DNA from: Rhodocyclaceae bacterium | GTDB taxonomy: Bacteria; Pseudomonadota; Gammaproteobacteria; Burkholderiales; Rhodocyclaceae | Direction: 5' to 3' | Length of the DNA stretch: 42,869 nucleotides | Assembly (NCBI GenBank): GCA_029982755.1 | Contig: JARRBR010000008.1 | Span: forward strand, 1-42,869 | Part shown: one piece after another, positions 1 to 9,028 of the stretch | Position numbering within the stretch: the stretch's first letter is position 1 | Layout of the letters: every line of letters starts with the position of its first letter | Position numbers and translations under genes: made by a program | Notes under the pieces: generated by a model | What the model was told of the DNA's origin: nothing | Seen by the model: only the letters and a program-made list of their open reading frames with translations | Database searches by the model: none

Positions 1-288
1 CACGTAGAGCTGGATGCGGCCCGACAGGTCCTGGATGGTGACGAAGCTCGCCTTGCCCATCACGCGCTTGAGCATGATGCGGCCGGCCACCTTGACCTCC
101 ACCGGGGTGGCTTCCAGTTCGTCCGCCTCCTTGTCGCCATAGAGCTCGTCGAGCTTGCCGGCGGTGTTCTCGCGCGAGAAGTCGTTGGGGAAGGCGCGGC
201 CACCGGCACGCCAGGCGGCGAGTTTCTCGCGGCGCTCGGCGATCAGGTGGTTTTCGTCCTGGGGCTGGGTGTTGGTCTGGTCGGCCAT
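1..288 (-). CDS. lysS: Lysyl-tRNA synthetase, N-terminal part (runs off the window)
   Basis: This is the first 96 codons of a class II lysyl-tRNA synthetase, which charges tRNA-Lys in the cytoplasm. The translation starts [20 protein letters not shown]. It continues with the N-terminal helix ([18 protein letters not shown]), then the beginning of the OB-fold anticodon-binding domain ([20 protein letters not shown], then [10 protein letters not shown]). The catalytic domain lies outside the window. The ATG at 288 is the natural start because the family-like sequence begins there. In E. coli and many proteobacteria lysS directly follows prfB; here about 7.6 kb of other genes lies between them. 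A promoter-like element at 352-380 suggests that lysS can be transcribed separately from the upstream genes. Identity is clear from sequence and synteny. Confidence 0.93.
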
Positions 289-468: not shown

Positions 469-1704
469 TCAGAACAAGCCTTCCTGCTCGCCTTTCCGAC
501 CGCTCGAACGCATCGCCGCTGCGAGCGCGACGAGAGCCGGGGGGAGCGTGTCCCTCTCCAGGCGGTCCAGCAAGGCCAGATCGCGCACGCTCAGCTCCCG
601 CTTCGCGGGCAGGCGTTCGAGGGCGTCGGCGTCCATCTGATCCGGCGCCCAGGACAATCCGCATTCCTGCCACAGCGATCCGGCAAGCATGGCGATGGCG
701 ATGCCGTCCGGGTCCGGGTCGCAGGCGATGCCTGCCGGTGCGGGCGCGAGACGCAGCAGGTGGCGCACGGCCTTCGACCACCATCCGGGTGGGTAGCCTG
801 GCAGCCAGAGCAGGGCTTCATCGGCGGAAAGCTTCGCCGCGAGCCTGTCGAAGACCGTGCGGTTCTCGACCAGGCGCCAGCGGCGCGGTGCGGGCTCGAT
901 ACCGGTGATCGCCGCGACGGCGGTAGGCGGCAGGCCGATGAAACCCGGAAGCGCGCCCAGTTCGACGCGGCCGGCCAGTGTGCTGCAGGCGAAAGACGCG
1001 CGCACGAGCAAAAGCGGCGCGTGCGCGACGATGCCGTCGGCGGCGAGGTCCAGGCGCTCCTCCAGCCAGGTCCAGTCGGCGTCGCCGATCGCCTTGGTGT
1101 CGCCGCGCGCGAACAGGGAAAAGTCGCGCCGGGTGGCGGCCGTCGGCCGATCGCGGCGCCAGCGCGCCAGCGCATCGAGCAGATCGGCCCGTCCCAGCGC
1201 GGTCCGCGGGGCGCAGGTATCGAGATCATGGGCTGCCGCGGCGAGATCGGCGTCGGCGTAGTCGAGGGTGTCGCGCCGCTGCAGCCAGGCGCGCAGGTCG
1301 GCATCGGGCTCGGGCAGGCCGAGACCCCGGCGGAGCGCTGCCGGATCGGTGAAGCGCAGCCGCTTCAGTTTCCATCCGCCGCGGTCGCGGGTCTCCTCGG
1401 CCTCGATCTGGCCATGGGCGAGCAGGTTCTCGTACAAGGCGAGCGCAGTGTTCGCACCTTCGGCCCCGGCCTTGCGCAGCAGGGCCTCCCACTGCAGCCG
1501 TGTGTCCGCGCTCGTGGCCCCCTTGAGCCACTGCGCAGCCAGCCGCCGCCATGCGCCGGGCCACACCTCCGGGTCCGGCGCCCGGGGCGCCAGCGCACGG
1601 CGCAGGCGATGGCCGCGCAGACTGGATGCGTCGGCCTTGCCGAGCACGGCGGTGGAGATACCGTGCTCGTCCGGCCCGCTCCAGGCGATCTCGTCGGCGG
1701 GCAT
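469..1704 (-). CDS. JetD/MksG-like Toprim (topoisomerase VI-like) nuclease subunit
   Basis: This 411-residue protein matches the Wadjet JetD / MksG pattern. The N-terminal half (about 30-170) is helical and arginine-rich. The segment FSLFARGDTK (195-204) resembles the conserved GD-S/T-K stretch of JetD. A Toprim-like core follows: the acidic motif VEN (279-281) and DPDPDG (329-334). The C-terminus carries the family-typical EQE (406-408). In characterised Wadjet systems this subunit is a dimeric nuclease that cleaves plasmid DNA brought to it by the SMC complex. Its ATG lies 12 bases after the SMC gene stop, so the two are almost certainly cotranscribed. All expected acidic residues are present, so it looks catalytically competent. 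The DUF2220 versus DUF2399 assignment cannot be settled by eye; the DPDPDG-IAIA core looks closer to the latter. Confidence 0.75.
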   Translation of the reverse strand: MPADEIAWSGPDEHGISTAVLGKADASSLRGHRLRRALAPRAPDPEVWPGAWRRLAAQWLKGATSADTRLQWEALLRKAGAEGANTALALYENLLAHGQIEAEETRDRGGWKLKRLRFTDPAALRRGLGLPEPDADLRAWLQRRDTLDYADADLAAAAHDLDTCAPRTALGRADLLDALARWRRDRPTAATRRDFSLFARGDTKAIGDADWTWLEERLDLAADGIVAHAPLLLVRASFACSTLAGRVELGALPGFIGLPPTAVAAITGIEPAPRRWRLVENRTVFDRLAAKLSADEALLWLPGYPPGWWSKAVRHLLRLAPAPAGIACDPDPDGIAIAMLAGSLWQECGLSWAPDQMDADALERLPAKRELSVRDLALLDRLERDTLPPALVALAAAMRSSGRKGEQEGLF

Positions 1705-1716
1705 GATCGTGCGGCC

Positions 1717-4509
1717 TCAGTCCACCGCTCGCTGCAGCACGCCGATCGGCGGCGCCCAGTCGCTGCCGGGCTGCTTCTTGCGCGTGACTAGCGTGAGCTG
1801 CGCGGGGGCGAAGACGTTGGCGTTGTGGGTGACCGGGGTGGTGATCAGGTACTGGGCGCGGGTGGCGCGCAGGAAGGTGCCGACGCGGTCGATGTTGGCG
1901 ACGTCGAGGTGGGCGAAGGGTTCGTCGATGAACACGAAGCCGCCCGGGCGCGACTCGTCCATCAGCAGGCCGATCAGCAGGATCAGCGACTTCATGACCT
2001 GCTGGCCGCCCGAGGCCTCGCCGTCGTTCAGGCCCACCGCGCCCTTGCGGTCGAAGTCGAAGCGCACCTCGAGCCCGGCCTGGGCGAGCGAGAGGTCGTC
2101 GTTTTCCAGATGGGGGGTGGGGCAGTCGACGCTGAGGTTGGCGAGCTCGCCGAGCGCCTTCAGGTTCTTCGCATACTGGCGCACGGTGGCGCGCAGCTTG
2201 GCGATGTAGGCGGCGCGCGCGTTGTCGGTGTGGAGCCGCGCGGTGGTGCAGTAGCCCTGGCGGTTGAGGTAGTCGCGCTCGCGCAGCGCGACGTCGGCGG
2301 CGAGGCGGTCGCGCACCACCAGCACCGCGGGGTCGGTGATCCAGTCGCCTTCGTCCAGGCGCCTGTGCAGACGGTCGAGCTCGCGCCGGGCGCCGGTCGC
2401 GCCGCCGTACCGGTCGGCGAGCAGGGCGAGTTCGGCGGCGTCGAGCCAGTGCGCGGGCATGCCGCGCCGGCGGCGGCGCAGCTTCATGATGCGCTCGGCC
2501 TGGGCGTGACGGCGCGGGCCGTGCTCGCGCGCGATGTCGGCCAGGCGCAGGTCGATGGCCTTGAGCTCGCGGCTGCGGCGGTCGAGCTCGATCTGGATGC
2601 CGTTGAGCCTCTCGCCGAGGCGGTCCAGCTCGCCGCGGGTTTCGGTGCGCTCGGCGATCGCCTCGGTCAGCGCCTTGCGCGCGGCGGGGAGCTCGGCCTC
2701 GGCGCTGGCGTAGGTATCTGCCTTGGCGGCGAGCAGTTGCGCCGACTGCAGGCCGAGCAGGCGCTGGCGGATCGTGGTGAGTCTTGCGGCGGCGGCGTCG
2801 AGCCTGGGGCGCAGGACCTGGAGCTGACTGTCGAGGCCGGCGATCTCGTCCTGCAGCGCGGCGATGCGCGACTGGCGTGCAAGCTCGCCGAAGTGGAATT
2901 CCTGCGGCCGGCCGAGGTGACGGGCGCCGCGCCTCTCGCGGTGGTAGCCGTCGCGGGTGATCCACTCCTGCTCGCGCGGCAGCCCGCGTGCGGCTTCCGC
3001 ATTCTCGACACGGCGGATGCGGTTGAGCAGATCGGTCAGCCAGCGCGGCACCGGGGCGCTGAATCCCACCACCTCGGCCAGGCTCGTCGGCCGCGGCGGC
3101 GGCGCGGGCTCGCGTTCCGGCACGATGAAGTGGCGGAAGCGCTCGCGCTCGCCGAGCGCCCACGCGGCGTGGCGGTCGGCCTCGCGCTCGAGCAGGATCA
3201 GGTGGCGGTAGGGGCGCAGGATGGCTTCGAGCGCAGCCTGCCACGCCGGGTCGGTCACTTCCACCACCTCGGCGAGGCTGTTGTGCGCGATGCCCTCGGC
3301 GCTCAGCTTGACGCGGAAGCGCGCGACCTCCGTGTCGCCGGGCGGGCCGGCGCGGTTGCGCTCGGCACGCAGGGTGTCGGTCCTGTCCTCGAAGGCGGCG
3401 ACGAGCTCGCGCTCCCTGCGGCGCAGGGCGGCAAGTGCGGCATCGGCTTCCTCGTGTTCCCGCTCCAGCGCGACGGCATCCGCGCCGTGCTCGCTGGCGA
3501 GCTGGGCGCGCAGGGTGTCGCGTTCTTGGAGCAGCTTCTCCAGGTCGCGCACGCGGTCGTGGGCGGCGAGGTAACGCTGCTCGGTGGCGGTGTCGCTTTC
3601 CTTCAGGTGCCTGCGTTCGGCCTGGGCAGCCTCCTGCTCGCTGCGCACGATCTCCAGGCGCTGGCGGGATTCGCGCTGCTCCACGAGCTTCTCGCTGCGC
3701 TCGCGGCCAACGCGGTGCAGGGCCTCGCGCTCGGCGGCGATCTCGCGCTCGAGCTCCGCGATCTCCAGCCGCGGCACGATCTCGGCCGCCAGCGCCTGGG
3801 TCTCGTCGGCGAGCTGCTTCCACTCCAGGAAGCGGTTGGCCTCGGCCTTCTTCTCTTCGGCCTGGGTCTTGAGACGGTCGAGGTCGATGCCGAGCTCGCC
3901 CAGTTCGCGCTCGGCCGACTTTTGTTCCTCGCGCGCGGCCTGGTAGTTGTCCAGCACCTCCTTGTCGCCGAAGACGTCGAACACCAGCTCGAGCAGCGCC
4001 TTGGGCGAGTATTCGCACAGCTTGTCGGTGTCGCCCTGCTCCAGCGCCAGCACCTTGGTGATCGCCGGCGTCAGGCCGCCCCAGGCGAGGCGGTTCTGGT
4101 AGTCGCGCAGGCCGATCCAGTCGCTGGTTTGCTCCAGCGCCTCGATCGGCAGGTTGCCGTCGACGATGGTGTAGTCGCGGATCCAGTCGCCGCCGGCCTT
4201 GCGGATGCGACAGGCGAGCGTGACCTCGTCGGCCAGGCAGGGGAAGAAGGGACGCCTGCCGCCGTGCCCGGGCCGGTTGGCGACCACCGCGCGGATCCAC
4301 GCGAAGCTGCGCTCGGCGCGGCGCACGTAGCGGCGGAAGTCGCGCTTGCCGGAGCAGCGCAGCGCGAACAGCGTGCGCAGGGCGTCGAGCAGCGTGGTCT
4401 TGCCCGAGCCGTTGGGGCCGACGATGGTGATGATCTGCGCGTCCAGCGGCAGCGAGAAGCGGCGCCAGAAATCCCAATGGACGAGCTCGAGGGTCTTGAT
4501 GTGGAACAT
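1717..4509 (-). CDS. SMC/MukB-like ATPase (JetC/MksB-like)
   Basis: This 930-residue protein is an SMC-type ATPase. Walker A is GPNGSGKT at 31-38 and the Q-loop is ALEQGD near 155-160. A charged coiled-coil arm spans about 185-385, a non-coiled hinge-like domain about 395-540 (including TDPAWQAALEAILRP), and a returning arm about 540-700. The ABC signature ASGGQQ lies at about 832-837, Walker B FVFIDEP at 858-864 and the D-loop HLD at 867-869. Both halves of a composite ATPase head are intact. The arms are short compared with MukB (about 1,480 residues), which fits JetC/MksB subunits. The role by family is ATP-driven DNA loop extrusion that presents circular DNA to the nuclease subunit. The gene starts 21 bases after trmA and is followed 12 bases later by the nuclease gene. 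Confidence 0.85.
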   Translation of the reverse strand: MFHIKTLELVHWDFWRRFSLPLDAQIITIVGPNGSGKTTLLDALRTLFALRCSGKRDFRRYVRRAERSFAWIRAVVANRPGHGGRRPFFPCLADEVTLACRIRKAGGDWIRDYTIVDGNLPIEALEQTSDWIGLRDYQNRLAWGGLTPAITKVLALEQGDTDKLCEYSPKALLELVFDVFGDKEVLDNYQAAREEQKSAERELGELGIDLDRLKTQAEEKKAEANRFLEWKQLADETQALAAEIVPRLEIAELEREIAAEREALHRVGRERSEKLVEQRESRQRLEIVRSEQEAAQAERRHLKESDTATEQRYLAAHDRVRDLEKLLQERDTLRAQLASEHGADAVALEREHEEADAALAALRRRERELVAAFEDRTDTLRAERNRAGPPGDTEVARFRVKLSAEGIAHNSLAEVVEVTDPAWQAALEAILRPYRHLILLEREADRHAAWALGERERFRHFIVPEREPAPPPRPTSLAEVVGFSAPVPRWLTDLLNRIRRVENAEAARGLPREQEWITRDGYHRERRGARHLGRPQEFHFGELARQSRIAALQDEIAGLDSQLQVLRPRLDAAAARLTTIRQRLLGLQSAQLLAAKADTYASAEAELPAARKALTEAIAERTETRGELDRLGERLNGIQIELDRRSRELKAIDLRLADIAREHGPRRHAQAERIMKLRRRRRGMPAHWLDAAELALLADRYGGATGARRELDRLHRRLDEGDWITDPAVLVVRDRLAADVALRERDYLNRQGYCTTARLHTDNARAAYIAKLRATVRQYAKNLKALGELANLSVDCPTPHLENDDLSLAQAGLEVRFDFDRKGAVGLNDGEASGGQQVMKSLILLIGLLMDESRPGGFVFIDEPFAHLDVANIDRVGTFLRATRAQYLITTPVTHNANVFAPAQLTLVTRKKQPGSDWAPPIGVLQRAVD

Positions 4510-4530
4510 GGGCCGGGGTCGCGGTGAGGT

Positions 4531-5637
4531 TCAGCGCCGCTGCAACAGCAGTCCGCACTCGAGGTGGTGGGTGTAGGGGAACTGGTCGAAGGCCGCCGCG
4601 GCCGCGATGCGGTGGGTGGCCGACAGCGCGGCGACGTTGGCGCGCAGGGTCTCGGGGTTGCAGGAGATGTAGAGGATGTTGTCGAAGCCCTTCGCCAGCG
4701 CGATCGTGCCGTCATCCAGGCCGGCGCGTGGGGGGTCCACGAAGAGCGTGGAGAAGCGGTAGCCGGCGAGATCGACGCCCGCCATGCGGCGGTACTCGCG
4801 CCCGCCGGCGAGCGCGTCGCTGATCTCCTCGCTCGCCATGCGCACCATGGTCACGTTGGCCACATTGTTGTCGGCGAGGTTGGTGTGGGCGGCGCGCACC
4901 GAAGTTTTGCTCATCTCGGTGGCGAGCACGCGGCCGAACAGCGGCGCCAGCGCGACTGTGAAGTTGCCGTTGCCGCAGTAGAGCTCGAGCAGGTCCCCTG
5001 GGCCTTGCGGGCTGGCGCCCACGGCCTTCGCCTGCGCGCGCGCCCAGCTCAGCATGTGCTGGTTCACGCCACCGTTGGGCTGGGTGAAGCTGCCTTCGAA
5101 CTGCTGGTAGCGCAGGCGCTGGCCGTCGACCTCGAGCACCTCCTGCACCCAGTCGCGCTCGAGCACGATCTTCTGCTTGCGGCTGCGGCCGATGACCTGG
5201 ATGCCGAGGTCGGTGGCGAGCGCGCGCGCGGCGGCTTCCCAGGCCTCGTCGAGCGGGCGGTGGTAGACCAGGCTCACCAGGCACTCGCCGCTCAGGGTGG
5301 CGAGGAACTCGATCTGGAAGATCTTGCGCCGCAGCGGCTCGCTCGCCTGGATGGCGTCGCGCAGGCGCGGCATCAGGCTCGCGATCGGCTCGGCGGCGGC
5401 GGGGAAGCTGTCGAGCAGGATCGGCTGCTTCGGGTCGGCGCTGTCGAACATCGCGTAGTCGATGCGCCCGTCCTGGTGCCACAGGCGGAATTCGGCGCGC
5501 AGGCGGTAGTGCAGCGGGGCGGAGCGGAAGACTTGCGGTTCGGGGAGCGCGAACTCGGCGAAGTCGACCCGGTAGCGGTCGAGCTTGGCGGCGAGCTGCT
5601 CCTCGTAGTGCGCGGGGTCGATGTGGGGCAGGGGCAT
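4531..5637 (-). CDS. trmA: tRNA (uracil-5-)-methyltransferase
   Basis: This 368-residue protein is the SAM-dependent enzyme that makes 5-methyluridine at position 54 of tRNA (the T-loop). Diagnostic features are the glutamine-rich stretch FTQPNGGVNQ, the SAM-binding motif LLELYCGNGNFT, the motif FVDPPRAGLD, and the catalytic cysteine in ISCNPETL. The C-terminus HHLECGLLLQRR is typical. Length matches E. coli TrmA (366 residues). The unusual point is position: it sits between the MukE-like and SMC-like genes of a condensin/nuclease operon, 98 bases after the former and 21 bases before the latter, on the same strand. No family knowledge links TrmA to Wadjet systems, so any functional connection is unproven. 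The enzyme looks complete. Confidence 0.95.
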   Translation of the reverse strand: MPLPHIDPAHYEEQLAAKLDRYRVDFAEFALPEPQVFRSAPLHYRLRAEFRLWHQDGRIDYAMFDSADPKQPILLDSFPAAAEPIASLMPRLRDAIQASEPLRRKIFQIEFLATLSGECLVSLVYHRPLDEAWEAAARALATDLGIQVIGRSRKQKIVLERDWVQEVLEVDGQRLRYQQFEGSFTQPNGGVNQHMLSWARAQAKAVGASPQGPGDLLELYCGNGNFTVALAPLFGRVLATEMSKTSVRAAHTNLADNNVANVTMVRMASEEISDALAGGREYRRMAGVDLAGYRFSTLFVDPPRAGLDDGTIALAKGFDNILYISCNPETLRANVAALSATHRIAAAAAFDQFPYTHHLECGLLLQRR

Positions 5638-5692
5638 GGATTAGCGGGATCTTGTGACAGAAATGCAGGGTGGCCGCGCCGCGGCGACGCAC

Positions 5693-5734
5693 GCTGTGGG
5701 AGCGGATGCTGTGGGAGCGGATGCTGTGGGAGTG
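5693..5734. repeat. 15-bp tandem repeat, nearly three copies
   Basis: The unit GCTGTGGGAGCGGAT begins at 5693, 5708 and 5723; the third copy diverges at its end (GTGGGAGTGAT). It lies in the 98-base gap between the MukE-like gene and trmA. The core GTGGGAGCGG resembles part of intergenic REP-type repeats seen in some pseudomonads. That is a resemblance only. Confidence 0.85.
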
Positions 5735-5735
5735 A

Positions 5736-6446
5736 TCACGCGTCCTCCGCGGGAGCATCCTCATCGGCCAGCACGTCGGCATGTTCGAAGGCATTGGCCT
5801 CGGGCAGTGCGTGGCCGGCGGCGGCGAGCAACTCGCCGAGCGTGCCGTGGATGATGCGGTCGGCCATCACCCGGTAGTCGAGCGCGAGGTCGAGCAGCGG
5901 GCCCTCGCTGATCAGGCCGTTGCGACGCTCGATGAAGCCCAGGCGGGCGAGCTTGCCGAGCATGAAGTTGCGCACCTTGGTGCGTCCGCCGAGGCGCGGG
6001 CCGAAGTCGGCGATCAGCGAGGCCTCGGTCAGCGTGCCGGAGACCGTCTCGCCATGCGCCACCGGCCTGTCGCCGCCGCCGAAGAGGTCGCTCTGGCCGT
6101 CGTCGACAAGTTCGCGGCGGGTGACCTGGCGCTCGCGCTTGGGCAGCACGATCAGGGACCAGATGATCACCAGCAGTGCGATCTCGTCGCGGGTGAGGCC
6201 CATGTTGCTGGCGGCGTACTCGCGCCCGGCGCCGAACACCGGCTCGGCGAGCTCGGACTCGAGCGCGACGCCGACGTGGGCGGCGTAGGGATTGTCGAGC
6301 AGACGCAGGCCGACGTCGGCGAGACGGCGGTCGAGCTCGTGGCGGAAGGTCTCGTCCACCAGCGCGCGCCGCACCAGCTTGTCGCTGCGCGGCAGGCACC
6401 GTTGGGCGAGCAGACGCGCGGTGAGGGTCTTGAGTTCGAATTCCAT
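5736..6446 (-). CDS. MukE/JetB-like (KITE, DUF4194-like) SMC accessory subunit
   Basis: This 236-residue acidic protein occupies the slot of JetB/MksE, the winged-helix KITE partner that binds the kleisin in MukBEF-like complexes. Visible features are an N-terminal helical/winged-helix region, a hydrophobic helix (LTRDEIALLVIIWSLIVLPK, about 84-103), a basic QVTRREL turn, a second winged-helix segment (FMLGKLARLGFIERR, about 162-176) and an acidic tail ending EDAPAEDA. The assignment rests on this wHTH pattern and on gene order (kleisin-like, this gene, then SMC); pairwise similarity in MukE-type families is low, so the exact Pfam family is uncertain. It starts 30 bases after the kleisin-like gene. 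The 98-base gap downstream, before trmA, is the largest inside the operon. Confidence 0.65.
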   Translation of the reverse strand: MEFELKTLTARLLAQRCLPRSDKLVRRALVDETFRHELDRRLADVGLRLLDNPYAAHVGVALESELAEPVFGAGREYAASNMGLTRDEIALLVIIWSLIVLPKRERQVTRRELVDDGQSDLFGGGDRPVAHGETVSGTLTEASLIADFGPRLGGRTKVRNFMLGKLARLGFIERRNGLISEGPLLDLALDYRVMADRIIHGTLGELLAAAGHALPEANAFEHADVLADEDAPAEDA

Positions 6447-6476
6447 GGTGGCGCGTGGCGTTGGAAGCCGGGGTGC

Positions 6477-7784
6477 TCAGCCGGCGGGTTGTTGCTGGGG
6501 GGCTGCCGTGGGCGTCGCCGGCTGGCGCGGACGGACCTCGCCAAGTGTCGCAGCGGCGATCTCGTCCTCGCCGACAGGCGTCAGGGTGTCGCCGAACTCG
6601 ACCTCCACCGGCAGCCGCATGAAGCTGCCGACCGGGCCGTCTTCCGGTCCCGCCTCCGCGCCATCGGCCAGCAGTGCGAGCAGCGACAGGCGATAGCTCG
6701 CGGGCGCGAAGCCGCCGCCGGCGATGACCCGATGCAGCGGCTGGGGAGCGGGCAGGGCGTCGAGGCGGTGGGTGAAATGCTCGAGCAGGCGCAGGTCCTC
6801 GGCCTGAAGCGTCACCTCGGCGGTCTCCGTGTCGGGCGGGGGCAGGCCGGCCTGCGCGTCGAGGGCGGCGGCTTCGCCCTCCAGCATCGCCTCGGCACGG
6901 TCGAGCAGTTCATGTCCCCCGGCCAGTAGCGGAAGCTCCGGTACGGCGGCGAAGGCGTCGATCGCCAGCCCGGCGATCTGCCCTGCATCCAGGCTGCGCA
7001 GCCACGCGGCGACGTCCGAGGACGAGATGCCCGATCCGCCCAGCGTCACCCGCTGCGCCTCGATCTTGTTGAGCGCGCGCTGGAAGGCCGCGTCCACCCG
7101 CGCCAGCCGCGACTGCGCCAGCCCGATGCGCTGCGCGATGCGGGCGATGTCGAAATCGACCTCGGGGTCGGCGAGCAGGGCGTTGAGGATGTCGGTGCCG
7201 CGTTCCAGCCAGCGCCCGTTGGCCGACAGGCGGCGGCGGGCGTCCAGGATGCGGAACTCGGAGCCCGAGGCGATCGCCTCCTCGAAGTGCCAGCTGAGAT
7301 CGTTGAGCTTGGACAGCAGGTGGCCGAGGGCCTCGGCGGTGATGCTGCCCACCGCCTGCAGGCCGGCGAGCTGGGCGGTCAGGAAACCGAGCTCGGCGTC
7401 CTCTTCCTCGCCGAAGCGCAGCAGCATCGCGATCGCCGCCACCGCGTTGCGGCCGACGTCCGACAGTGCGTAGTGGCCGTCCTCGCCGATCGCCAGCAGC
7501 GCGTTGTCGCGCAGGCGCTTGAGCACGGTCTCGAGCTTGACCGCATCGAGGTAGCTGAAGCGCGCGCGCAGTGCGTCGGGCGACCAGCGCGGCGAATCCG
7601 CCTCGCGGCCGATCTCGCGCAGCACCAGCAGGCGCATCAGGACTTCGGCCTCGGTGCCGCGGAATAGCGTGATGAAGGCGTCGAGCAGCGGGCGCGCCGC
7701 GGCCAGCGCCGCGAGCTCGGGCACTTCGTCGGCATCCACGCCGGTGGCGAGAAAGTCGGAGAGGAAGGAGGGGGCGGTGCTCAA
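6477..7784 (-). CDS. Kleisin-like subunit (JetA/MksF-like), probable TTG start
   Basis: By position this is the kleisin of the SMC complex (JetA/MksF/MukF role), bridging the SMC heads and binding the KITE subunit. The 435-residue translation begins LSTAPSFLSDFLATG if the TTG at 7784 is the start. An N-terminal winged-helix-like region (about 20-120) is followed by a long helical middle (about 150-250) and a C-terminal region ending in a proline/glutamine-rich tail. The open frame continues upstream to 7973, but that part is serine/arginine-rich and overlaps prfB, so it looks like an antisense-type artefact. No strong Shine-Dalgarno precedes the TTG; a GTG at 7739 is an alternative. I do not recognise a strong family signature. 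The assignment depends on gene order and predicted winged-helix/helical layout. Confidence 0.55.
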   Translation of the reverse strand: MSTAPSFLSDFLATGVDADEVPELAALAAARPLLDAFITLFRGTEAEVLMRLLVLREIGREADSPRWSPDALRARFSYLDAVKLETVLKRLRDNALLAIGEDGHYALSDVGRNAVAAIAMLLRFGEEEDAELGFLTAQLAGLQAVGSITAEALGHLLSKLNDLSWHFEEAIASGSEFRILDARRRLSANGRWLERGTDILNALLADPEVDFDIARIAQRIGLAQSRLARVDAAFQRALNKIEAQRVTLGGSGISSSDVAAWLRSLDAGQIAGLAIDAFAAVPELPLLAGGHELLDRAEAMLEGEAAALDAQAGLPPPDTETAEVTLQAEDLRLLEHFTHRLDALPAPQPLHRVIAGGGFAPASYRLSLLALLADGAEAGPEDGPVGSFMRLPVEVEFGDTLTPVGEDEIAAATLGEVRPRQPATPTAAPQQQPAG

Positions 7785-7923: not shown

Positions 7924-9028
7924 TCAGACGCCCTGCTTGAGGCTCGCCGCGATGAAGTCGTCCAGGTCACCATCGAGCACGGCCTGGGTGTTGCCGACCT
8001 CGTAGTTGGTACGCAGATCCTTGATGCGCGACTGGTCGAGCACGTAGCTGCGGATCTGGTGGCCCCAGCCGATGTCGCTCTTGGAGTCTTCCAGCTTCTG
8101 CTGCTCCGACTGGCGCTTGCGCAGTTCGGCCTCGTACAGGCGCGCCTTCAGCATCGACATGGCCTCGGCCTTGTTCTTGTGCTGCGAGCGGTCGTTCTGG
8201 CACTGCACGACGATGCCGGTCGGTTCGTGGGTGATGCGCACCGCGGAGTCGGTCTTGTTGATGTGCTGGCCGCCGGCGCCGGAGGCGCGGTAGGTGTCGA
8301 TGCGCAGGTCGGCGGGGTTGATCTCGATCTCGATCGAGTCGTCAACCTCCGGATACACGAACACCGACGTGAAGCTGGTGTGGCGGCGGGCGTTGGAGTC
8401 GAAGGGCGACTTGCGCACCAGGCGGTGGATGCCGGTTTCGGTGCGCAGGTAGCCGTATGCGTACTCGCCGGAGAACTTGATCGTGCAGTTCTTGATGCCG
8501 GCGACTTCGCCCTCGGTCTCTTCCATCAGCTCGACGGTGAAGCCTTTCTTTTCGCCGTAGCGCAGGTACATGCGCTCGAGCATGCCCGCCCAGTCCTGGG
8601 CCTCGGTGCCGCCGGCGCCGGCCTGGATCTCGATGAAGCAGTTGTTGGGGTCCATCGGGTTGCTGAACATGCGGCGGAACTCGAGCTTCTCGATCGCGCC
8701 CTGCAGCTCGACGAGGTCGGCCTCGACCGCCTCGAAGGTGTCGTCATCGTCCTCGGCTTCGGCGAGCTCATAGAGATCCTTGAGGTCGCGCGACTGCGCG
8801 TCGATCTGCTGCAGCGTCAGCACCACGTCCTCGAGCTGGCGCTTTTCCTTGCCGAGCTCCTGGGCGCGTTCGGCGTTGTTCCAGACCGCCGGGTCTTCCA
8901 GCGCGCGATTGACTTCTTCGAGCTTCGATGCCTTCACATCGTAGTCAAAGATACCTCCGTAGTTCGCGACCGCGGGCGGCGAGGTCGGCGAGTTTTTCGG
9001 CGATGGCGTTCTGGCGTTCGGCTTCCAT
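7924..9028 (-). CDS. prfB: Peptide chain release factor 2 with programmed +1 frameshift
   Basis: RF2 terminates translation at UGA and UAA. The protein is made from two frames. The ATG at 9028 opens 27 codons ending ...RELRRYL, followed by an in-frame TGA (8947-8945). After a +1 shift translation continues DYDVKASK to the stop at 7924, giving 367 residues. Motifs are the UGA/UAA-reading SPF (in [11 protein letters not shown]) and the catalytic GGQ (in [12 protein letters not shown]). Length fits E. coli RF2 (365). A conventional caller would start at the GTG at 8937 and lose about 30 residues. A TATAAT box lies about 35 bases upstream of the ATG. The gene stands between the dehydrogenase cassette and the SMC operon rather than between recJ and lysS directly. 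Confidence 0.96.
8944..8959 (-). promoter_or_regulatory. prfB programmed +1 frameshift site
   Basis: On the minus strand the sequence reads CGGAGG-TAT-CTT-TGA-C. It has an internal Shine-Dalgarno-like GGAGG (8958-8954) three bases before the slippery CTT, then the UGA stop followed by C. This is the classic autoregulatory RF2 site: when RF2 is scarce, ribosomes pause at UGA and slip +1 to read GAC. Confidence 0.95.

What the first reader, a model, noticed from the sequence alone, without database searches (positions are those of the whole stretch)
469..7784. Wadjet/MksBEFG-like SMC-nuclease operon inserted between prfB and lysS
Seen directly: four genes in the order kleisin-like, MukE/KITE-like, SMC ATPase, Toprim nuclease, on one strand, with intact Walker A, signature, Walker B and Toprim acidic motifs. 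From established knowledge: JetABCD/MksBEFG complexes extrude and cleave plasmid DNA. Inference: this is a chromosomal variant of that defence system, or a fixed chromosome-maintenance complex. The kleisin-like subunit does not show a strong known signature, so the variant may not fall into the described Wadjet types.
Basis: partly seen in the sequence, partly recalled or inferred. Interest (0 to 1): 0.85.

Follow-up and report, generated by a model that had tools for sequence, protein, structure and literature searches.

The report
Condensin-like complex with optional nuclease
A Thauera genome carries a three-protein DNA-loop motor of the Wadjet/Mks group with a detachable Toprim nuclease, and many relatives keep the motor but lack the nuclease, which suggests a chromosome-care machine that can be armed against plasmids.

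Summary
The four genes are real: minus-strand group prfB–F–E–[trmA]–B–G–lysS, motifs intact. B is an SMC nearest to Wadjet JetC type I, G a JetD-like Toprim nuclease, E folds like JetB, F is probably a kleisin (weak evidence). It is a divergent Mks/Wadjet-group complex, not SbcC/RecN. New is its evolution. In 29 Thauera genomes B is found in 26 but G in only 7, one broken. Among 82 related loci G changes state at least 10 times, usually right behind B, and has its own history (Thauera G as one clade rejected, p 0.009). FEB without G stays under purifying selection (dN/dS of B 0.04–0.24, nine pairs). In the family of Chitinilyticum and Jeongeupia B is in 40 of 41 genomes; Smc and ScpA are both unfound in the same 13, all those of two genera, probably two losses, with no full-length MukB and no G. 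Best reading: FEB is a housekeeping loop extruder, G an exchangeable nuclease that makes it anti-plasmid. Nuclease-less Wadjet-group members are in print; the cartridge behaviour and likely Smc replacements are the testable part.

The parts
1..288 (-). lysS, 5' part (runs off the window); downstream boundary
469..1704 (-). G: Toprim nuclease, JetD/MksG-like, 411 aa, starts 12 nt behind B
   Evidence: PADLOC JetD1 7e-9 here, best 4e-20 among 16 members, all 16 match JetD1; DUF2399 in 10 of 16; acids invariant in 16
1717..4509 (-). B: SMC ATPase, JetC/MksB-like, 930 aa
   Evidence: PADLOC JetC1 2e-25, SMC_N and weak SMC_hinge at 409-509, best PDB sequence match JetC 8dk2 7.6e-8, only just ahead of an SMC1 (1w1w, 1.8e-7); motifs intact
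4531..5637 (-). trmA: tRNA (uracil-54-C5)-methyltransferase, only copy found, lying between E and B in one Thauera clade
   Evidence: TIGR02143 491 bits; only trmA of the genome; embedded in 13 of 29 Thauera genomes, elsewhere in 13, not found in 3
5736..6446 (-). E: KITE-like subunit, 236 aa
   Evidence: AlphaFold model (mean pLDDT 68.8); top three PDB folds are JetABC chains of JetB size: 8as8_C E 8e-4, 8dk1_F 1e-3, 8dk1_E 3e-3
6477..7784 (-). F: kleisin-like subunit, about 435 aa; start codon (TTG at 7784) inferred from where relatives' conserved part begins
   Evidence: winged helix, helical bundle, low-confidence linker, C-terminal strands and helices in the model (pLDDT 80.9, pTM 0.42); MukF-size chains among weak PDB fold hits
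7924..9028 (-). prfB (release factor 2) with programmed frameshift; upstream boundary
   Evidence: TIGR00020 507 bits on 7924-8937; ATG at 9028 and in-frame TGA at 8947 read (frameshift motif recalled)

Best explanation
F, E and B form a MukBEF/JetABC-type SMC complex: two B ATPases joined by a hinge, bridged by the kleisin F, with KITE E. It extrudes DNA loops and is kept mainly for chromosome organisation. G is an add-on Toprim nuclease that docks on the complex and, as in Wadjet, cuts a small circular DNA once it has been reeled in completely; a genome with G, like this one, is therefore also anti-plasmid. G is gained, swapped and lost behind B without loss of FEB. Shown here: the parts, their relatives, G's patchiness and separate history, selection on FEB without G, no Smc or ScpA found in 13 FEB-bearing genomes. 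Inferred: loop extrusion, plasmid cleavage, docking, chromosome role.
For: Relatives: JetC1/JetD1 profiles, JetB-like fold (55), SMC hinge in 7 of 12 (72). B in 26 of 29 Thauera genomes, G in 7, of which G014 has only pieces. 82-row FEB tree: 16 G+, 55 G-, 9 unknown, 2 remnants; at least 10 changes of state. Where a GGDEF-type gene follows B within 4 kb (30 loci), its match starts 1340-1577 nt behind B in the 6 loci with G and 26-328 nt in the 24 with no G between: the difference is about one G gene. A loss-only history fits far worse (lnL -54.2 against -33.8 to -34.2), and Thauera G as one clade is rejected (p 0.0087). dN/dS of B 0.037-0.241 in nine G-/G- pairs and 0.015-0.051 in seven pairs without Smc. 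13 genomes with FEB's B show no Smc or ScpA, no full-length MukB (75) and no G (79).
Against: No experiment shows a chromosome role or plasmid cleavage for this family. In C. glutamicum the MksBEFG complex does not fold the chromosome (PMC7022226, passage). Thauera also have Smc (27 of 29 over cutoff, the other two in contig-cut pieces) and ScpA (28 of 29), so FEB is not the only condensin there. F as a kleisin rests on weak fold hits (none at E 0.001 or better). B is sporadic outside Thauera: 5 of 32 other genomes. In the second family dN/dS of B without Smc (0.015-0.051, 7 pairs) overlaps that with Smc (0.023-0.123, 8 pairs), so selection there does not show an added load.
Confidence: 0.6

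Rival explanations
1. A purely defensive, divergent Wadjet: FEB is retained as an anti-plasmid or anti-phage sensor, and G-less genomes use another effector in trans or act by sequestering DNA without cutting.
For: G is JetD-like with intact acids; B and E are closest to JetC and JetB.
Against: B is near-fixed (26 of 29 Thauera; 40 of 41 in the second family) and no less constrained without G than with it, unlike typical defence genes; no G-type nuclease in trans in G-less relatives at E 0.001, except pieces in G014 (which scored at most 30 candidates a genome); in 13 genomes FEB is the only SMC complex found. Other nuclease families in trans were not searched.
Confidence: 0.22
2. FEB is a pure chromosome condensin and G is a decaying, non-functional hitchhiker in the few genomes that carry it, this one included.
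For: G is in pieces in G014 and L138 and split between two frames in L098, which may be a draft error; G has higher dN/dS than B in 5 of 6 pairs.
Against: G is open and full-length in 6 of 29 Thauera, this window included, its acids are invariant in 16 members, its dN/dS is 0.07-0.44 in six pairs, and its tree and distribution point to re-acquisition, which argues for use.
Confidence: 0.12
3. The complex is an SbcC/Rad50/RecN-like repair machine rather than a kleisin-SMC complex.
For: SbcC_Walker_B matches 3 of 12 B members weakly.
Against: SMC_N in 12 of 12 and SMC_hinge in 7 of 12; JetC1 in 12 of 12; E folds like JetB.
Confidence: 0.03

Closest known systems
Wadjet / JetABCD type I (MksBEFG of C. 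glutamicum, EptABCD of Mycobacterium)
   Same: kleisin-KITE-SMC-Toprim gene order; B nearest JetC1, G nearest JetD1, E fold nearest JetB-size chains; acids of G intact
   Different: F matches no JetA profile and E almost no JetB profile; B is 930 aa against 1096 and 1119 for solved JetC chains; no IFDR in the conserved part of E (0 of 82); nuclease missing in many relatives; trmA embedded here
MksBEF of Pseudomonas aeruginosa (nuclease-less, chromosome role)
   Same: nuclease-less complex; [quoted passage not shown] co-exists with Smc-ScpAB (PMC7022226, passage)
   Different: here one clade has members with and without the nuclease, with repeated changes; no direct sequence comparison with the P. 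aeruginosa MksB was made
MukBEF of Escherichia coli
   Same: kleisin/KITE design; nuclease-less (PMC7617805 passages); said to have replaced Smc-ScpAB in its lineage (PMC10586767 passage)
   Different: B is not MukB (PF04310 weak in 2 of 12 members, not in the window's own B); MukBEF is one replacement in a common ancestor, here two separate ones are indicated
Smc-ScpAB
   Same: general SMC design
   Different: B scores 121 bits on TIGR02168 against a cutoff of 567 and coexists with true Smc in Thauera

Membership tests
Wadjet/MksBEFG group | SMC ATPase with Walker A, signature, Walker B and hinge, related to JetC/MksB | tested here: met
   JetC1 in 12 of 12 members (best E 3.7e-27; mad3, LmuB and AriA profiles follow; long coiled-coil stretches contribute); top PDB match JetC, just ahead of SMC1; SMC_hinge in 7 of 12, below cutoff in the window's own B (20.1 against 22.5 bits)
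Wadjet/MksBEFG group | KITE subunit (JetB/MksE) | tested here: met
   top three PDB folds are JetABC chains of JetB size (176-195 aa; chain names not given), E 8e-4 to 3e-3, a MukE-size chain fifth, on a model of mean pLDDT 68.8; sequence profiles only 2 of 25 members, best E 0.005
Wadjet/MksBEFG group | kleisin subunit (JetA/MksF) | tested here: inconclusive
   no JetA profile in 25 members; MukF-like layout in the model; MukF or MukF-size chains among weak fold hits at E 0.037-0.12, generic winged helices as good, no JetABC entry in the 50 listed
Wadjet/MksBEFG group | Toprim nuclease JetD/MksG with acidic metal site | tested here: met
   JetD1 in 16 of 16 members, best 4.3e-20; E and DxD invariant. 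Present in only 7 of 29 Thauera, one in pieces
Wadjet type I specifically | JetA1, JetB1, JetC1 and JetD1 profiles all recognise the operon | tested here: not met
   only C and D are recognised in the window at E 0.001
Wadjet type I specifically | IFDR motif in JetB that contacts JetD (PMC10586767 passage) | tested here: not met
   0 of 82 E proteins contain IFDR (the profile-matched part only, so extensions outside it were not searched)
Wadjet/MksBEFG group | ATP-dependent cleavage of circular plasmids | not testable with these tools
   needs biochemistry
MukBEF | MukB N-terminal domain PF04310 | tested here: not met
   2 of 12 members, best E 0.0017; not listed for the window's own B
Smc-ScpAB | SMC over TIGR02168 cutoff, ScpA partner | tested here: not met
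   121 against 567 bits; F has no Pfam match; true Smc and ScpA lie elsewhere in the genome
SbcC/RecN/Rad50 | no kleisin/KITE partners, no SMC hinge | tested here: not met
   hinge matches in 7 of 12 and a JetB-like partner

The most novel reading that the evidence does not exclude
A clade of the Wadjet group has become a housekeeping condensin whose nuclease is a swappable cartridge, and in two genera of the family of Chitinilyticum and Jeongeupia the nuclease-free form has independently replaced Smc-ScpAB as the only SMC condensin of the chromosome.
Probability: 0.5. Interest if true: 0.8.

Novelty: new variant of a known kind. Interest (0 to 1): 0.6.

Why it matters
A review asks how the same kind of SMC complex can both secure chromosomal DNA and restrict foreign DNA, and supposes that MksBEF and MukBEF came from a defence system by losing the nuclease (PMC10586767, passages). 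Here one clade shows the nuclease coming and going several times while the motor stays, so near relatives form natural matched pairs, and in two genera the complex must do any SMC work alone if nothing was overlooked. One deletion or one contact map there would decide whether a Wadjet-group motor can run a whole chromosome, and the armed relatives could show how a genome avoids being cut.

Tried and rejected
Rejected: SbcC/RecN/Rad50; MukBEF and Smc-ScpAB membership; four contiguous genes (trmA inside). Rejected as the sole history: 'G ancestral and only lost'. Gain-only (lnL -34.2) and two-way (-33.8 to -34.2) histories cannot be told apart.

Led nowhere: viral contigs (127 stretches matched a pattern, none a relative); plasmids (3 records, none covering 80%); PDB sequence profiles of F, E and G (nothing credible); promoter and terminator scan (0 promoters, 5 terminators all on the plus strand, near chance). 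A compositional hint for G as foreign DNA (third-position GC 0.86 in L033 against 0.94-0.95 for B, trmA and E there) was not followed; window GC shows no step at G. A link between G and particular residues of E, F or B was not tested. ScpB and the old smc sites of the 13 genomes were not examined.

Errors of mine: one row (L067) was translated on the wrong strand; one search repeats the G tree with it corrected, and only one search is used for the clade tests. Rows dropped before the 82-row tree: of 113 loci considered, those without near-full F, E and B, or with an identical B, were left out; L099, whose B lies in two frames in the draft, is one of them. The 82-row tree is a quick search that flagged long branches.
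Full report
WHAT IS THERE. On the minus strand the window reads prfB – F – E – trmA – B – G – lysS. Gaps are 30 nt (F–E), 98 nt (E–trmA), 21 nt (trmA–B) and 12 nt (B–G), so one transcript is likely (inference). trmA (TIGR02143, 491 bits) was missed; it is the only trmA found in the genome. The window belongs to genus g1, which is Thauera: a g1 contig of 46,520 bases equals the record of Thauera sp. UBA6194.

IDENTITY OF THE PARTS. B: SMC_N above cutoff; SMC_hinge at residues 409-509 just below cutoff in the window and found in 7 of 12 members. PADLOC JetC1 matches 12 of 12 members (best 3.7e-27), followed by mad3, LmuB and AriA. The best solved relative by sequence is JetC 8dk2 (7.6e-8), just ahead of an SMC1 (1.8e-7), both through short head stretches. 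B is 930 aa; the solved JetC chains have 1096 and 1119. G: no Pfam match in the window's own copy, but JetD1 in 16 of 16 members and DUF2399 in 10 of 16. Its acids E280, D329 and D331 are invariant in the 16. In MksG of C. glutamicum E236 and D279 bind the metal and their loss impairs cleavage (PMC10123090, passages); the residue-by-residue match is my inference from the motif. E: model of modest confidence (68.8); best PDB folds are JetABC chains of JetB size from E. coli (8e-4) and P. aeruginosa, a MukE-size chain fifth. F: model 80.9 (pTM 0.42) with winged helix, helical bundle, loose linker and a C-terminal part with two long strands; MukBEF, MukE-MukF and MukF entries rank 2, 4 and 17 at E 0.037-0.12 among generic winged-helix proteins, none at 0.001. 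F as kleisin is therefore probable from place and layout, not proven. JetA profiles match none of 25 F members, JetB 2 of 25 E members.

WHAT VARIES. In 29 Thauera genomes B occurs in 26 (not found in G012, G016, G028; some copies cut by contig ends). G occurs in 7, of which G014 has only pieces. Among all 50 searched genomes that are at least 90% complete and at most 5% contaminated, B is in 23 and G in 4. trmA sits inside the operon in 13 Thauera genomes (the 12 others 86-95% identical to the window's), elsewhere in 13 (69-73%), and was not found in 3. The nine embedded ones that are rows of the FEB tree form one clade with no other row in it, so one relocation. The other Thauera clade often has an amidotransferase-like and a second gene there on the other strand (names by eye).

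NAMED RELATIVES. 73 of the 80 show F-E-B in order; six others begin less than 2 kb before B; L100 has B without F or E. On a tree of 82 loci, 16 carry G, 55 lack it with downstream DNA seen, 9 are undecided and 2 hold remnants; at least 10 changes. G lies within 35 nt of B in most, 99-743 nt behind it in the Aquitalea, Pseudothauera and T. linaloolentis types, and 5.5 kb away in L112. With 73 informative rows (remnants counted as absent) a loss-only history has lnL -54.2, gain-only -34.2, both directions -33.8 to -34.2. The G tree disagrees with the FEB tree: T. linaloolentis-type G (72% to Pseudothauera's) and window-type G (53% to the former, where FEB is 85%) are not one clade (p 0.0087; with Pseudothauera added p 0.27). 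Where a GGDEF-type gene follows (30 loci, 5 of them with it on the other strand), its match starts 1340-1577 nt behind B in the 6 with G and 26-328 nt in the 24 others, so the difference is about one G gene.

SELECTION. Nine pairs without G in either partner have dN/dS of B from 0.037 to 0.241, 0.9 to 3.5 times that of prfB in the seven pairs where prfB was measured. The motor is kept for something other than G.

GENOMES WITHOUT SMC. In Thauera Smc is over cutoff in 27 of 29 genomes, in contig-cut pieces in the other two, and ScpA is found in 28. In the family of G040, however, B is in 40 of 41 genomes, while ScpA and Smc are each found in the same 28 (Smc at E 1e-100). The 13 without are all 6 sampled genomes of genus g13 and all 7 of g39, five of them in one contig at 99-100% completeness. 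In G040 the best looser Smc match (1e-14) is B itself. MukB's domain gives only short matches (56-114 of 226 positions, 21.7-24.3 bits against a cutoff of 23) in 9 of these 13, in frames of 255-521 aa, too small for MukB. G is in 4 of 41, none of the 13. F, E and B are present at the locus in 12 of the 13; in the thirteenth (G097) the contig ends in E. On the tree of B the two genera are apart: 2 changes, one clade rejected. That is a tree of B, not of the species. dN/dS of B is 0.015-0.051 in 7 pairs there and 0.023-0.123 in 8 pairs with Smc, many with dS near or above 1, so no sign of a changed load. Limits: ScpB was not searched, the old smc sites were not inspected, and because B is nearly fixed in that family, the link between FEB and loss of Smc rests on two events, not on a statistical association. 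G044, of another family, has no Smc over cutoff, no ScpA and no B, so a small genome can do without all three.

HOW IT WORKS (inference from known relatives). JetABC is thought to extrude DNA; when a small circle is fully reeled in, JetD cuts (PMC10586767, passages). FEB is best read as such a motor in daily use on the chromosome, G as a cutter that can be fitted. P. aeruginosa MksBEF, nuclease-less and active on the chromosome, is the nearest functional precedent (same passages). Against: C. glutamicum MksBEFG does not fold the chromosome (PMC7022226, passage).

PRIOR ART. PMC7617805 (passages) built a Wadjet-group tree with MksG presence and says several members lack the nuclease; its operon list could not be read, and its size limit (MksB over 890 aa) would admit this clade. 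So nuclease-less members are known. In the listings (titles and abstract starts, open-licence library only) of searches (30 of 96 listed; 15 of 30 listed) and 94 I saw nothing on this clade in Thauera, on a nuclease exchanged at such a locus, or on Smc loss in Chitinibacteraceae; subscription papers are mostly not held. I read passages of five papers: PMC10586767, PMC10512200, PMC10123090, PMC7617805, PMC7022226.

VERDICT. A divergent Mks/Wadjet-group complex; new variant of a known kind. Interest lies in the optional nuclease and the two genera without Smc.

Noticed in passing
window 8940-9028 (-): prfB begins with ATG at 9028 in another frame and meets an in-frame TGA at 8947 after TATCTT, preceded by a GGAGG run: the classic release-factor-2 programmed frameshift site (motif recalled).
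   Followed up: no
window 5688-5732 (-): The spacer between E and trmA holds three near-copies of a 15-base unit (ctcccacagcatccg) head to tail.
   Followed up: no
L138 13284-13611; L071/L072 (G014:C6): Remnants of the nuclease gene behind an intact FEB (L138) or on another contig of the same genome (G014); in L138 a nucleotidyltransferase-like gene lies between B and the remnant (label by eye).
   Followed up: partly
L169 (G014:C24:17491-17925): A second, divergent JetD-like frame in one Thauera genome (E 3.3e-12), perhaps another Wadjet system.
   Followed up: no
L105, L108, L056 and 27 other loci: A GGDEF-type gene lies behind B (or G) in 30 loci; in many Thauera a methyl-accepting chemotaxis-like gene on the other strand lies behind B instead (names by eye from the sequence).
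   Followed up: partly
L100, 10 kb before B: Pseudothauera nasutitermitis has B with no F, E or prfB match in the 10 kb upstream; F and E may lie elsewhere or be lost.
   Followed up: no
L187, L190, L199, L206 (coordinates): In the family of Chitinilyticum B often lies within 1.2-5 kb of a contig end, as if a long repeat (such as an rRNA operon) were next to it.
   Followed up: no
G044: A 1.9 Mb genome of the same order with no Smc over cutoff, no ScpA and no B match.
   Followed up: no
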